Of a stretch of 64,000 bases of DNA, positions 49,924 to 53,859 are shown in pieces. Numbering within the stretch: the first letter of the stretch is position 1; every line of letters begins with the position of its first letter. The notes beneath the pieces were generated by a model, which saw only the letters and a program-made list of their open reading frames with translations, was not told the origin of the DNA and ran no database searches. The position numbers were made by a program, and so were the translations under genes. Source of the stretch: Pagrus major (lineage: Eukaryota > Chordata > Actinopteri > Spariformes > Sparidae); NCBI RefSeq assembly GCF_040436345.1, contig NC_133215.1:23363806-23427805 (forward strand), in the 5' to 3' direction.

Positions 49924-50778
49924 TTAAGTGGCAACTCTGACAGGAAAGTAAGTGCTGTTATGCAAAGATGAAGCACTGTAAATAGCAGTTTTCTTATAGT
50001 TTTCTAAAACCTTCACAACGACAAAGGGAAGCAAAAGAGACACAATAATTACACAAGTGATGGTAACAATGAGCCAGAATCCTCCGGCTGGTAATGCAGA
50101 TATCAGATGTAGCGTATTGCTCTCTCTGTCATAAAGACAGTTCAGGTTGCTCTTCAGTCTGTAGACGACTTTACACCTCTGTGCATCTGTCTCGATGTCA
50201 GTGACTTTGAAAAGCTCATAGGGAGGAATCAGCACCTGGCTGGTTCCTTTCAAGGCTGAGTAAGCTGTTATGTCAGCACCAAAACATGTATATATTTCAA
50301 AACATGAAGCGTTCCGTGTGAAGTTCCTCCGATCAGAACCTAATATGAAGGTGCTGAACCGGATCAGTTTGTTAGAGATGTTCTGATTCAAGAGTGTCTC
50401 TGTTCTGTATTTTGTACTAAGACACGTCAGCTGACTGTGCTTCAGAACCTGAATGGCCTCACTAAGAGAAGAATACAGGGAGCGTGACGCAAATGTCTCC
50501 TTTAGTTGTTTTTCGGTTCTGTCTTCAGTGTCATGTTTGGACTTGACAGGTTGCAACATAACATTTGTGTACATATATATGGCAATCGAATGATGTTTCT
50601 CCATGTAGATGTGTACAGGCTCTCTAGATTTTTGCTCTGCATTGCTCCAAGCTTTGCTGAAGTTTGTGCTGGTATCCCATGTCTGCATTATGGCTTTATC
50701 AGTCACAACCATAGCTTTGGCTCTGCAGTCGTCATCCATGTCGTCATTCACGTTGAAGTTCAGATCCTGAGTAGAATG
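49924..50778 (-). CDS. ART gene A, main exon
   Basis: Acceptor CTCCTTTCAG before 50778, then HSTQDLNFN and VNDDMDDDC, so no ATG is needed here. Stop at 49924-49926. Encodes the whole ART domain and the C-terminal transmembrane segment. Conserved Cys residues of the family (DDDC, SCFEIYTC, NLNC) are all present, so the fold should be stable. Confidence 0.9.
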   Translation of the reverse strand, partial: HSTQDLNFNVNDDMDDDCRAKAMVVTDKAIMQTWDTSTNFSKAWSNAEQKSREPVHIYMEKHHSIAIYMYTNVMLQPVKSKHDTEDRTEKQLKETFASRSLYSSLSEAIQVLKHSQLTCLSTKYRTETLLNQNISNKLIRFSTFILGSDRRNFTRNASCFEIYTCFGADITAYSALKGTSQVLIPPYELFKVTDIETDAQRCKVVYRLKSNLNCLYDRESNTLHLISALPAGGFWLIVTITCVIIVSLLLPFVVVKVLENYKKTAIYSASSLHNSTYFPVRVAT

Positions 50779-51168
50779 CTGAAAGGAGAGGGGTGTTGTT
50801 CAGTATTTGTCCAGTAGATGGAAACCTACACTAAATGAACAGTATTAAACTGGAACAGTCCATAGTTTTCCTTAACAAACAATTATGGCTTTCAGAATCT
50901 TTGACTGTGCACACTTTAGATTAGAACAATATGTTTTTTTAAACACTATCTCTGATCAGTAGCTCCTTTTATATTTTGGTTAAGTCTTCTAAATCGATGT
51001 CATATGCATTGTGTTCAATAAATAGCTTACCTCTCCAACAATATCCTGCCAGCTGAGTGTCAGATATACGACAACAAACATGAGCAGTCCCACCAAAAGA
51101 ACAAGAGATGTGATAGCACAAGCAGATAATGTTGTTCTCTGACATGCTTGCCTCTCCCAGGAAGGCAT
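49924..51168 (-). CDS. ecto-ADP-ribosyltransferase-like gene A, likely pseudoenzyme, membrane-anchored
   Basis: Two coding exons, 51031-51168 (46 codons) and 49924-50778, joined in phase 0, 330 residues. The fold is that of vertebrate arginine-specific mono-ADP-ribosyltransferases: DDMDDDC near the start, LSEAIQVLKH, KYRTE, ASCFEIYTCFGADITAYSAL and VLIPPYELFKVTDIE. N-terminal exon: a short basic tail and a transmembrane helix (TSLVLLVGLLMFVVVYLTL), a signal anchor rather than a cleaved peptide. A second hydrophobic segment (FWLIVTITCVIIVSLLLPFV, about 278-300) precedes a short tail. Of the R-S-ExE catalytic signature only Arg171 stays; the S-T-S position reads FILGSD (190-195) and ExE is T-S-Q (225-227). 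NAD glycohydrolase or transferase activity is therefore unlikely. Divergent partner of gene B. Confidence 0.88.
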
Positions 51169-51175
51169 GTTGCAT
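51031..51175 (-). CDS. ART gene A, anchor exon
   Basis: Begins after CTCTGTTCCAG at 51175 with ATGCAACATGCC. The second ATG (51168) is in frame with the main exon and gives MPSWERQACQ, the helix and LSWQDIVGE, exactly 46 codons as in gene B, so I choose it. The upstream ATG at 51175 reads a different frame. Donor GTAAGC. Confidence 0.85.
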
Positions 51176-52660
51176 CTGGAACAGAGGAAATCTGTCATTA
51201 AACCCAGAGGAACTGAGATCGGGGTGGATTTCGTTCTATGTGAAATGCTTTTCATATTGTCTTTCTTGGAATCAAGGGGGGAAACCCCTACAGTAGTTCC
51301 TGAATGATGACGATAATATTTCTGATGCTATACGTGTGTGCTGTTAAATGATTTGAATTTAAATTGGGAACTGTACTGTAAGTTGGTTTATGTACACACC
51401 ACATCTCCACACTGGTAGGCTCCCAAATGGGAAATACATGCAGGGGGAATGAATGAAGCACCACAGGAGCACACTGGTGTTTGGTGTGCGCTTGACTCTC
51501 CTGATAGCAAATTAGTCACTCACTCACTCACTCACTCACTCACTCACTCACTCACGCGCACACGCACGCACGCACGCACGCACGCACGCACGCACGCACG
51601 CACGCACACACACACACACACACACACACACACACACACACACACACACACACACACACACACACCTCTGTACACTATCTACCTGACCAGAGACAAGTTC
51701 TACTACATCTTTACAGTTTAAAACGTAAATCGATTGTGACTCTAGCTTTAAAATGTATTCTTGTATATCAAGCTCTACGGTATATCTCCAGTTGATCAAA
51801 AACACAATTAAAGATGCTGCACTGCTCATTAAAATTAGGTGGTGCTTAGCCATTGACTCGTCACTCTAGTGTGTAGGTCAGAAAGTACAAAACAAACTAG
51901 CAATGTTGAAAATGTTTTCATAACTTACCACATGGTGAACAGCACTGTGGTGAAGTTTTTGTCTTTAATCATTACACAACCTAGTCCAGAGTGAAAAATG
52001 TCTTCCGTTTTAGTTTGTGTTTTTTGCAGCTCAATGATTTACCTTTGTTTGTTTTTGCTTAAGCAAGCTACCAAACAGGATTTACCTGTATTACCACATG
52101 TAGAACCGCCCTCCTGGCAGTGCAAACAGTGACGTGACAGAGCCAGTGTTGACAGAGGACTTCATTTATACTTGACAAATACATACACATATAGCACGAG
52201 AATATGTCGCAAACTGTTAAAACGCTGTTTTTTTTTTTGGAGTGGTTCCTTGTCAAACAAACGCGTTTAAACAATGTAAGATAAGATCCATATTAGCACT
52301 GATGCCTTCAGGGAAAGGGGGTAGAAGAATATCTGTGCTGTGTGGTTGTACCTGAAAATCCAGTGAGCTCGGATTAAGTGACAACACTGCATCCGCACTT
52401 TCCCTCAAAGGAATATGGTGCTGCTGTTAGGAGCACTTGTCAGGGGAAAGGTAAGACAACATGATCCAATTTCATATTTGGTGGAGAAAATGAGGATGTT
52501 GACAAGGAAATATTGTGGGGCTTCTGATTATGGTTTACTGTTTATATGAGCCTGTACTTTGACCTGCACATACAAACTGAGTCATTGTGTTTGAAAGAGG
52601 ACAATCACACTGGTCTTAAGAGCCATTTTACTCAAAAGAAGTATTTTTGTTTTCATTCAG
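51176..52660. promoter_or_regulatory. shared upstream region of head-to-head ART genes A and B
   Basis: The two genes start 1.5 kb apart and point away from each other. Likely noncoding first exons: minus strand ending CACCATGTG with donor GTAAGT (51929), and plus strand ending GGGGAAAG with donor GTAAGA (52450). That leaves about 0.45 kb as a common promoter region. A compound microsatellite (51516-51665) sits in gene A's first intron. Exon-1 positions are inference from splice signals. Confidence 0.45.
51516..51665. repeat. compound (CACT)n(ACGC)n(CA)n microsatellite
   Basis: Three adjoining tracts: about 9 CACT units, about 13 ACGC units and about 30 CA units. The long open frames here translate the repeat. 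Confidence 0.95.
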
Positions 52661-52800
52661 ATATGAAGTTTTGCAAAGGACCAGTGCATGTGCGGAAGTC
52701 AGTGAGAAACCGGACAAGCCTCTGTGTGTTGTTGGTGGTGGCATTCCTCTTGTATCATGACCCATTTCTACTCCTCTGGTGGTCTCAGAAACCTGCTGAG
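52661..52800 (+). CDS. ART gene B, anchor exon
   Basis: Acceptor TTCATTCAG at 52660, ATG at 52663, donor GTAGGT. 46 codons in phase 0, identical in length to the anchor exon of gene A. Confidence 0.85.
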
Positions 52801-53859
52801 GTAGGTGACAGCGCTTTCTTTGCACAGTTTACCTGCTCAGATTCAGTCAGTCATCACAAATAGATTTTTTTCCTGCCGATTGACATTGAATATTCTGAAC
52901 CTTCTGTAATTGTTGGTTTGCTCACTGTAGCTGTGTCTTATCTGTCACTGCAGAAACCTAAGACTGGCGGTGTACATCTGGATATGGCAACAGAGTCCAT
53001 TGATGACATGTACGATGGCTGCCGATCTGAGACAGCCTCTGTGATTGACGTGTTTGGCGTGTACGAGTGGCATGTCAACAGAAACTTCAGTTATGCCTGG
53101 GCTGCAGTTGAAAGACTTGCAAAGAAACCTGTGCACAAGAACCTGACTGAAGAGCACGCTATAGTTCTGTACATGTACACCAAAATTAAAAATATCAAAC
53201 GAGATTTCAACAAAGCAGTGAAAACGGGGAAACACAAGTACAGCACTTATGGGTTTAAGTTCCACTATTTCTACTTTTACCTGACTGATGCTGTTCAAGT
53301 TCTGCGTCACAATCAGACGTCGTGCAGAACCAGCTATCACAGGACACGGAAACAGTTTGACCACAATGTCATCAACACGAACATGCGCTTTGGGGCTTTC
53401 ACTTGGGCAGCTTCAAGCAAGCAGTCCTTTGAATTTAATGGCAATGTGTCATGTTTTGAGATTCATTCATGCTTTGGTGCTGATATAACATATTACTCTG
53501 CTTCAAACCAAATGGGACAGGTGCTGATTCCTCCCTATGAGGTCTTCACAGTCACTGATGTCCTGACAAATGACCCATGGTGCAATGTGGTCTACAAGCT
53601 ACAGAGCACCAAAATACCAAGGAGAGATTTAAATTGTAATTTGAATCGAAGACAAAAGCAATTATATTTTGCAACATTTTCAACACAAAACACTCAAATT
53701 CAAGCAGGAAGTGTTGGGATGGTGTTGATATGGCTAATGCTATTGACTATTATTTCTTTAGTTCTTGTAAAACGCAAGCAGAAGTGCTTTGTGGCTGCAG
53801 TGCTGGGTTCTCTGTTGGTGCTACTGATTGTTCTGCTGATGTTGAAAGTTAGCCATTGA
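52663..53859 (+). CDS. ecto-ADP-ribosyltransferase-like gene B, likely pseudoenzyme, membrane-anchored
   Basis: Exons 52663-52800 (46 codons) and 52954-53859 join in phase 0 for 347 residues. N-terminal exon: basic tail MKFCKGPVHVRKSVRNR and hydrophobic LCVLLVVAFLLYHDPFLLLW, a signal anchor. ART domain: SIDDMYDGC, RNFSYAWAAVE, LTDAVQVLRH, SCFEIHSCFGADITYYSA, VLIPPYEVFTVTD. All three catalytic signatures are altered: the usual Tyr-Arg is Tyr-His (174-175), the S-T-S region is FTWAASS (195-201) and ExE is M-G-Q (233-235). The C terminus has two hydrophobic stretches (VGMVLIWLMLLTIISLVLV and VAAVLGSLLVLLIVLLML) separated by KRKQK. Probably a non-catalytic surface protein, sister to gene A. AATAAA at 53933. 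Confidence 0.88.
52954..53859 (+). CDS. ART gene B, main exon
   Basis: Acceptor TGTCACTGCAG, then KPKTGGVHLDMATESIDD, stop TGA at 53857-53859. The open frame continues upstream into the intron, but those codons are not part of the protein. Confidence 0.92.
   Translation, partial: KPKTGGVHLDMATESIDDMYDGCRSETASVIDVFGVYEWHVNRNFSYAWAAVERLAKKPVHKNLTEEHAIVLYMYTKIKNIKRDFNKAVKTGKHKYSTYGFKFHYFYFYLTDAVQVLRHNQTSCRTSYHRTRKQFDHNVINTNMRFGAFTWAASSKQSFEFNGNVSCFEIHSCFGADITYYSASNQMGQVLIPPYEVFTVTDVLTNDPWCNVVYKLQSTKIPRRDLNCNLNRRQKQLYFATFSTQNTQIQAGSVGMVLIWLMLLTIISLVLVKRKQKCFVAAVLGSLLVLLIVLLMLKVSH

What the first reader, a model, noticed from the sequence alone, without database searches (positions are those of the whole stretch)
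49924..53859. A divergent pair of ADP-ribosyltransferase pseudoenzymes tethered at both ends
Seen: genes A and B keep the ART fold, the conserved Cys residues and the VLIPPYE strand, but ExE has become T-S-Q (A) and M-G-Q (B); the S-T-S segment is FILGSD and FTWAASS; B also has His in place of the catalytic Arg. Both have open frames and intact splice sites. Known: ExE is essential for arginine-specific transfer in the ART family, and loss abolishes activity. Inference: both have been kept as non-catalytic surface proteins (decoy, NAD or substrate binding, or a receptor). The N-terminal anchor plus C-terminal transmembrane layout differs from the usual signal peptide plus GPI layout.
Basis: partly seen in the sequence, partly recalled or inferred. 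Interest (0 to 1): 0.85.

Follow-up and report, generated by a model that had tools for sequence, protein, structure and literature searches.

The report
Membrane-anchored dead ADP-ribosyltransferase pair
Two neighbouring genes in what is probably a fish genome look like surface enzymes that lost every catalytic residue yet stayed intact, so they probably work by binding rather than by catalysis.

Summary
A (49924-51168, minus) and B (52663-53859, plus) are intact two-exon genes of the vertebrate ecto-ART family (PF01129, 75.6 and 124.1 bits). Both lost the whole R-S-ExE motif: Arg to Tyr (A) or His (B), Ser to Leu or Trp, ExE to TSQ or MGQ. A codon model gives omega 0.24 (A) and 0.29 (B), not significantly different from the other branches; neutrality is rejected and 0 of 60 neutral simulations reached the observed value in each of three tests. 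Decayed ART pieces with stops lie in the same cluster. A looks anchored at both ends; B has an N-terminal and two C-terminal hydrophobic segments. Of nine ARTs found in the genome, six intact ones look secreted, three motif-less ones anchored. Acatalytic ARTs are known (ART3, ART4; GPI-anchored), so this is a new variant of a known kind. Most likely role: non-enzymatic surface binder. Structure prediction failed, no other species could be searched, and no partner is known.

The parts
51031..51168 (-). gene A exon 1: short basic start and long hydrophobic segment (about 51049-51135), signal-anchor type; start codon inferred
   Evidence: hydropathy peak 2.81, GTAAGC donor; net charge +1 before, -5 after
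49924..50778 (-). gene A exon 2: ART domain, C-terminal TM and 29-aa tail
   Evidence: PF01129 75.6 bits; rat ART2.2 E 3.1e-5
50407..50409 (-). A, catalytic Arg position: Tyr (TAC)
50341..50343 (-). A, catalytic Ser position: Leu (TTA)
50236..50244 (-). A, ExE position: Thr-Ser-Gln
50014..50079 (-). A, C-terminal transmembrane segment
   Evidence: peak 2.95; tail after it net +3
49900..49905 (-). A, AATAAA 19 nt after the stop
52663..52800 (+). gene B exon 1: basic start (+6) and hydrophobic segment (about 52714-52785); anchor or signal peptide; start codon inferred
52954..53859 (+). gene B exon 2: ART domain and two C-terminal hydrophobic segments
   Evidence: PF01129 124.1 bits; rat ART2.2 E 9.5e-19
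53338..53340 (+). B, catalytic Arg position: His (CAC)
53404..53406 (+). B, catalytic Ser position: Trp (TGG)
53512..53520 (+). B, ExE position: Met-Gly-Gln
53713..53769 (+). B, first C-terminal hydrophobic segment, followed by KRKQK
   Evidence: peak 2.85
53788..53844 (+). B, second C-terminal hydrophobic segment
   Evidence: peak 3.09
53933..53938 (+). B, AATAAA 74 nt after the stop
55702..56600 (+). gene C, intact-motif paralogue (R, S, ERE), signal-peptide-like start, no C-terminal anchor seen; exons 55702-55767 and 55851-56600
60961..62812 (+). gene D, intact-motif paralogue (R, S, EME), signal-peptide-like start, no C-terminal anchor seen; exons 60961-61023 and 62018-62812
58770..58871 (+). 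decayed ART fragment, stops in the three forward frames: contrast to A and B
   Evidence: (70.5% DNA identity to C)

Best explanation
A and B are a sister pair of membrane-held, extracellular, catalytically dead ecto-ART paralogues (pseudoenzymes) kept by purifying selection. The duplicated ancestor may already have lost Glu (to Gln) and Arg (to His) before A and B split. With Arg, Ser and Glu gone they should neither transfer ADP-ribose nor hold NAD in the usual way. They most likely work by protein binding through the retained ART domain at the cell surface. The partner is most plausibly a protein that this family already handles: an ART target protein, or a secreted active ART such as neighbours C and E. 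Shown: open genes with splice signals, motif loss, shared ancestry, constraint, hydrophobic ends. Inferred: membrane topology, inactivity, order of the losses. Guessed: the partner (about 0.2 for secreted ARTs, 0.25 for shared target proteins, the rest a receptor or another ligand).
For: PF01129 and rat ART2.2 matches. Motif and codons: CGC in C, E and G, CAC in B, TAC in A, and CAG for the last Glu in both. Sister grouping 97.4/94; five alternatives rejected, AU p 0.0021-0.0255. Omega 0.243 and 0.292 against 0.41 for the other branches; omega = 1 rejected with 2dlnL 12.8, 7.0 and 34.7 jointly. With one gene freed at a time 2dlnL is 15.8 and 9.3, and 0 of 60 neutral simulations reached the observed value in each of three tests. 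0 of 3000 neutrally mutated copies stayed open in each of four settings. 33 of 61 family-invariant columns are kept in both, including the six Cys. Poly(A) signals lie within 100 nt of both stops; 8.5% of 100-nt stretches hold one. Decayed relics exist in the same cluster.
Against: The branches are long (2.4-3.3 neutral substitutions per codon), so omega rests on near-saturated sites, paralogues of one genome and a home-made model without rate variation among sites. That omega is lower in A and B than elsewhere is not significant (2dlnL 2.6). Part of each branch may date from before inactivation. A has lost 23 of 61 invariant columns. AlphaFold models were poor (pLDDT 54.8 and 40.1) and Foldseek found no ART among the 50 rows shown of 172, so the fold rests on sequence alone. 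Start codons are inferred: A has an out-of-frame ATG just upstream, and no in-frame stop precedes either start for 53 (A) and 45 (B) codons. No expression data. No test for a partner.
Confidence: 0.7

Rival explanations
1. A and B are young decaying pseudogenes that happen to be open still.
For: Loss of catalytic residues; A is strongly diverged (23 of 61 invariant columns lost).
Against: Omega = 1 rejected, 0 of 60 simulations; 0 of 3000 simulated copies without a stop in each setting; splice and poly(A) signals present; relics nearby do carry stops.
Confidence: 0.05
2. They are enzymes with a changed active site: another acceptor, NAD hydrolysis, or a migrated catalytic residue.
For: Constraint persists; an Arg sits next to the lost one; apparent pseudoenzymes in other families have proved active (point made in PMC7955679, passages).
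Against: Arg, Ser and both Glu positions are lost in both, to different residues in A and B except the final Gln; no acidic residue stands at the final ExE position in either.
Confidence: 0.12
3. They are NAD sensors: they bind NAD without turning it over and signal through the membrane segments.
For: The rat ART2.2 entry 1og4 carries Ala for the catalytic Glu (seen) and is, from recall, an NAD complex; so loss of Glu alone need not abolish binding.
Against: Arg and Ser, which stabilise bound NAD in the R-S-E family (PMC10789625, passages), are gone as well; Leu and Trp replace the Ser.
Confidence: 0.08
4. The A/B pair is the fish counterpart (orthologue) of mammalian ART4.
For: Arg replaced by Tyr or His as in human and mouse ART4 (PMC2576468, discussion); human ART4 YRT (PMC7955679, passages) equals A's YRT.
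Against: ART4 has three coding exons, a GPI signal and the catalytic Glu (PMC2576468); A and B have two exons, no GPI-type tail and Gln. Chicken ART4 keeps the full motif, so the loss is not ancestral. Neighbouring genes do not suggest the ART4 locus (recalled, not tested).
Confidence: 0.05

Closest known systems
ART4 (Dombrock blood group carrier), mammals
   Same: ART family, motif broken including Arg to Tyr/His, extracellular, no enzyme activity found, retained (PMC2576468)
   Different: GPI-anchored, three exons, keeps the last Glu; A and B have membrane segments, two exons and Gln
ART3, mammals
   Same: PF01129 member with R-S-E lost (table in PMC7955679, passage), thought inactive
   Different: listed as GPI-anchored (PMC10789625, passage); motif changes differ
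ART5 and the intact paralogues C-H of this genome
   Same: same two-exon plan where both exons were found, same Cys; A/B lie next to C/E in the tree, but the grouping of these four against the rest is weak (91.2/64)
   Different: full R-S-ExE, look secreted, no C-terminal membrane segment seen
rat ART2.2 (1gxy, 1og1, 1og3, 1og4)
   Same: the clear family structures found by sequence
   Different: R, S and catalytic Glu present in the wild-type chain; GPI-anchored T-cell enzyme (recalled)

Membership tests
vertebrate ecto-ART (PF01129) | profile match over the curated cut-off of 22.3 bits | tested here: met
   A 75.6, B 124.1 bits
vertebrate ecto-ART (PF01129) | conserved Cys and VLIPPYE strand | tested here: met
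vertebrate ecto-ART (PF01129) | solved-structure relative by sequence | tested here: met
   rat ART2.2, E 9.5e-19 (B) and 3.1e-5 (A)
vertebrate ecto-ART (PF01129) | ART fold in a predicted structure | tested here: inconclusive
   pLDDT 54.8 and 40.1; no ART in the 50 rows shown
arginine-specific ART enzymes | R-S-ExE motif | tested here: not met
   A Y-L-TSQ, B H-W-MGQ
arginine-specific ART enzymes | transferase activity | not testable with these tools
   needs an assay
ART4 orthologue | three coding exons with GPI signal in the last | tested here: not met
   no donor over 4 bits in the last 150 nt of A or B; TM in exon 2
ART4 orthologue | gene order and tree with ART1-5 | not tested
   no vertebrate ART sequence on hand but the rat one
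pseudoenzyme kept by selection | catalytic residues lost and omega below 1 | tested here: met
   paralogues of one genome only
pseudoenzyme kept by selection | intact orthologues in other species | not testable with these tools
   no fish genomes other than the window's own were on hand; scans of viral contigs and genome contigs gave no relative

The most novel reading that the evidence does not exclude
This lineage has split an enzyme family in two: catalysis is kept in secreted ARTs, while membrane anchoring is kept in dead copies (A, B and the distant gene I). The dead copies dock the secreted enzymes or their targets at the cell surface, so A and B are receptors for their own active paralogues.
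Probability: 0.15. Interest if true: 0.7.

Novelty: new variant of a known kind. Interest (0 to 1): 0.42.

Why it matters
No function beyond carrying a blood group antigen was known for the acatalytic ARTs of mammals (ART3, ART4) when PMC2576468 was written. A second case, in which the motif loss is complete, the pair is duplicated, selection is measurable and the membrane plan is changed, points to a non-enzymatic use of the ART fold. It may also offer genes that can be removed in a fish model. The division in this genome between secreted intact and anchored broken copies gives a concrete hypothesis to test.

Tried and rejected
Structure: AlphaFold on exon 2 of A and of B, each with the four window paralogues as alignment, gave poor models. 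Foldseek on the better one (B) gave 172 matches up to E 10, none at 0.001, and no ART in the 50 rows shown, so no pocket was inspected; pdb_via was not run.

Relatives: two viral-contig scans and one genome-contig scan found no relative (the tool says that records of very near genomes may be left out). Orthologues and between-species dN/dS could not be tested. An own-genome search with B found the same nine ART places as the Pfam search, plus two chance matches at E 3.0 and 3.7. In that search the matches of G and H ran on past one TAG, beyond the ends of their open frames, towards B's C-terminal part. I looked there: the 60 codons after the stops of C-H held no strong hydrophobic stretch (highest 19-residue mean 1.88, in H in another frame; G in frame 1.50).

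GPI or TM tail as a third exon: scanned in the nine genes with a donor matrix from recall; only gene I gave a candidate.

Sub-threshold profile matches, rejected as membership: DUF6155 (A, 16.8 of 27 bits), DUF417 (B, 18.6 of 27 bits), and a bacterial ART-like effector family in NCBIfam (A 13.6 and B 18.3 bits against a cut-off of 300).

Regulation: an ISRE-like pattern occurs 19 times in the window (4.5 expected) but not between A and B. The bacterial promoter scan does not apply to a vertebrate. Rfam: none at the gathering score.

Considered and rejected: a one-residue slip that would save the Arg of A needs an insertion and a deletion within a short stretch, while Cys to IRF has equal length in A and C. 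GPI anchoring of A was rejected because a 29-aa polar tail follows the TM.
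Full report
What was checked. The window lies at C1:23363806-23427805 of an animal genome of 786 Mb in 25 contigs. The species is not given; I infer a ray-finned fish. Spliced models were built for four ART genes. A is on the minus strand (51168-51031, 50778-49924; 330 aa). B is on the plus strand (52663-52800, 52954-53859; 347 aa). C is 55702-55767 and 55851-56600 (271 aa), and D is 60961-61023 and 62018-62812 (285 aa). 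The four introns are GT-AG and phase 0, and exon 1 is 138 bp in both A and B. All four proteins match PF01129 above its cut-off of 22.3 bits: A 75.6, B 124.1, C 169, D 130.2. The clear solved relative by sequence is rat ART2.2; with C as query two PAAR-repeat protein chains (E about 0.007) and two MHC-related chains (E about 0.09) also appear.

The motif. A Pfam search of the whole genome found nine ART places, all on C1, and none in 14 control genomes; a search with B found the same nine. Both searches score only the best candidates. I call the others E (L002), F (L003), G (L004), H (L005) and I (L008). In the alignment of all nine with rat ART2.2, the six paralogues C-H keep Arg, Ser and ExE (ERE, EME, ENE, EAE, EEE, EDE). 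A reads Tyr, Leu, TSQ; B reads His, Trp, MGQ; I reads Tyr, Asp, DDS. The stretch from the preceding Cys to the IRF motif has the same length in A and C, so the Arg of A sits in the next position, where C-H also have Arg. The codons fit: CGC in C, E and G (AGA in D and F, CGG in H), CAC in B, TAC in A, a chain of single transitions. Both A and B have CAG for the catalytic Glu. That suggests, but does not prove, that inactivation began before A and B split.

More than drift. Of 61 columns invariant in C-H, A lost 23, B lost 15, and both lost 10; the four motif columns are all among those 10 (hypergeometric p = 4e-4; A alone 0.017, B alone 0.0026). The motif is defined by the family literature, not by this count. 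By difference, 33 of the 61 are kept in both, including six Cys.

Ancestry. A and B are sisters (SH-aLRT 97.4, ultrafast bootstrap 94). Five alternative trees that separate them are rejected, AU p from 0.0021 to 0.0255. Their placement next to C and E is weakly supported (91.2/64).

Selection. My own codon branch model (F3x4, one kappa, no rate variation among sites, 223 codon columns, nine paralogues) gave omega 0.243 for A, 0.292 for B and 0.41 elsewhere. A and B do not differ significantly from the rest (2dlnL 2.6 for one shared A/B omega). Omega = 1 is rejected for A (2dlnL 12.8), B (7.0) and both (34.7). When only one gene is freed the values are 15.8 and 9.3. 60 neutral simulations for each of the three tests reached at most 10.3 (A), 5.1 (B) and 6.5 (both), so 0 of 60 reached the observed value each time. 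Random neutral mutation of the present coding sequences left 0 of 3000 copies without a stop in each of four settings. Limits: these are paralogues of one genome, the branches are long (2.4-3.3 neutral substitutions per codon), and no calibration used real pseudogenes. As a contrast, two decayed ART pieces lie in the cluster: window 58770-58871, and C1:23431942-23432103 just after E, with stops in the three forward frames.

Gene signals. AATAAA lies 19 nt (A) and 74 nt (B) after the stop; 8.5% of 100-nt stretches of the window contain one. An acceptor-like sequence lies just before the start codons of A and B (read by eye), so each probably has a non-coding first exon. In A an out-of-frame ATG lies between that acceptor and the start, and neither start has an in-frame stop close upstream (53 and 45 codons), so the starts are inferred. 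There are no expression data.

Membrane plan. A has a long hydrophobic segment near the N-terminus (peak hydropathy 2.81; net charge +1 before, -5 after) and a C-terminal one (2.95) followed by a 29-aa tail of net charge +3. This fits an extracellular domain held at both ends. B has a very basic start (+6), an N-terminal segment (2.28) interrupted by HDP, and two C-terminal segments (2.85, 3.09) separated by KRKQK. B may be held by two or three segments, and its N-terminus could be a signal peptide. No signal-peptide or topology program was available. The intact paralogues C-H show no C-terminal hydrophobic tail and no splice donor above 4 bits in their last 150 nt (6 of 6). Candidate signal-peptide exons were found for C, D, E, F, H and I; none was clear for G, and no acceptor was scored for F. 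Gene I has a candidate third exon ending in a GPI-like tail. So the three motif-less copies look anchored and the six intact ones secreted. By my own arithmetic that split has a chance of 1 in 84 if the copies were independent, which A and B are not.

Mechanism. PMC10789625 (passages seen) says that Arg and Ser of R-S-E stabilise bound NAD. With both gone and bulky residues in place of Ser, NAD handling by A and B is unlikely. In human ART4, putting the motif back did not restore activity (PMC2576468; abstract and the sections background, identification, motif mutants and discussion read), so a dead ART can drift away from catalysis beyond the motif. What stays in A and B is the core, the Cys and the VLIPPYE strand. 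The best reading is a surface protein that works by binding. Possible partners are ART targets or the secreted active ARTs next door; nothing here tests this.

Known and new. Acatalytic ARTs are known: ART3 and ART4 of mammals, both listed as GPI-anchored (PMC10789625, passages; motif table in PMC7955679, passages). The Arg to Tyr or His change also occurs in human and mouse ART4, while chicken ART4 is active. Nine literature searches of one open library showed, by title and start of abstract, no paper on transmembrane acatalytic ARTs in fish among the rows listed. That is weak evidence: several searches matched far more papers than the 20 listed, and most subscription papers are not held. PMC5946108 and PMC11346364 mention fish ARTs in passing (passages). 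I file this as a new variant of a known kind.

Noticed in passing
L008 / L015 (C1:15314698-15315318, minus): A third motif-less ART (Tyr, Asp, DDS) with a candidate third exon giving a GPI-like tail; may be an ART3/ART4-like gene.
   Followed up: partly
window 58770-58871 and C1:23431942-23432103: Two decayed ART fragments with stops: the cluster has duplicated and lost copies.
   Followed up: partly
L002-L004 (C1:23431186-23471051): The ART cluster runs on for about 43 kb beyond the window with three more intact-motif genes.
   Followed up: partly
alignment columns 191 and 241: Two further Cys, absent at those positions from rat ART2.2 and gene I, are present in A-H (8 of 9 paralogues): perhaps an extra disulfide.
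   Followed up: no
whole window: GAAANNGAAA occurs 19 times against 4.5 expected, none between A and B; some are overlapping repeats.
   Followed up: no
38341-46098, minus: Open frames that look like a VWA7-type gene (recalled; the two pieces tested gave no Pfam match up to E 0.1).
   Followed up: no
about 51516-51666: Long simple repeat (ACTC, ACGC and CA units) between A and B (read).
   Followed up: no
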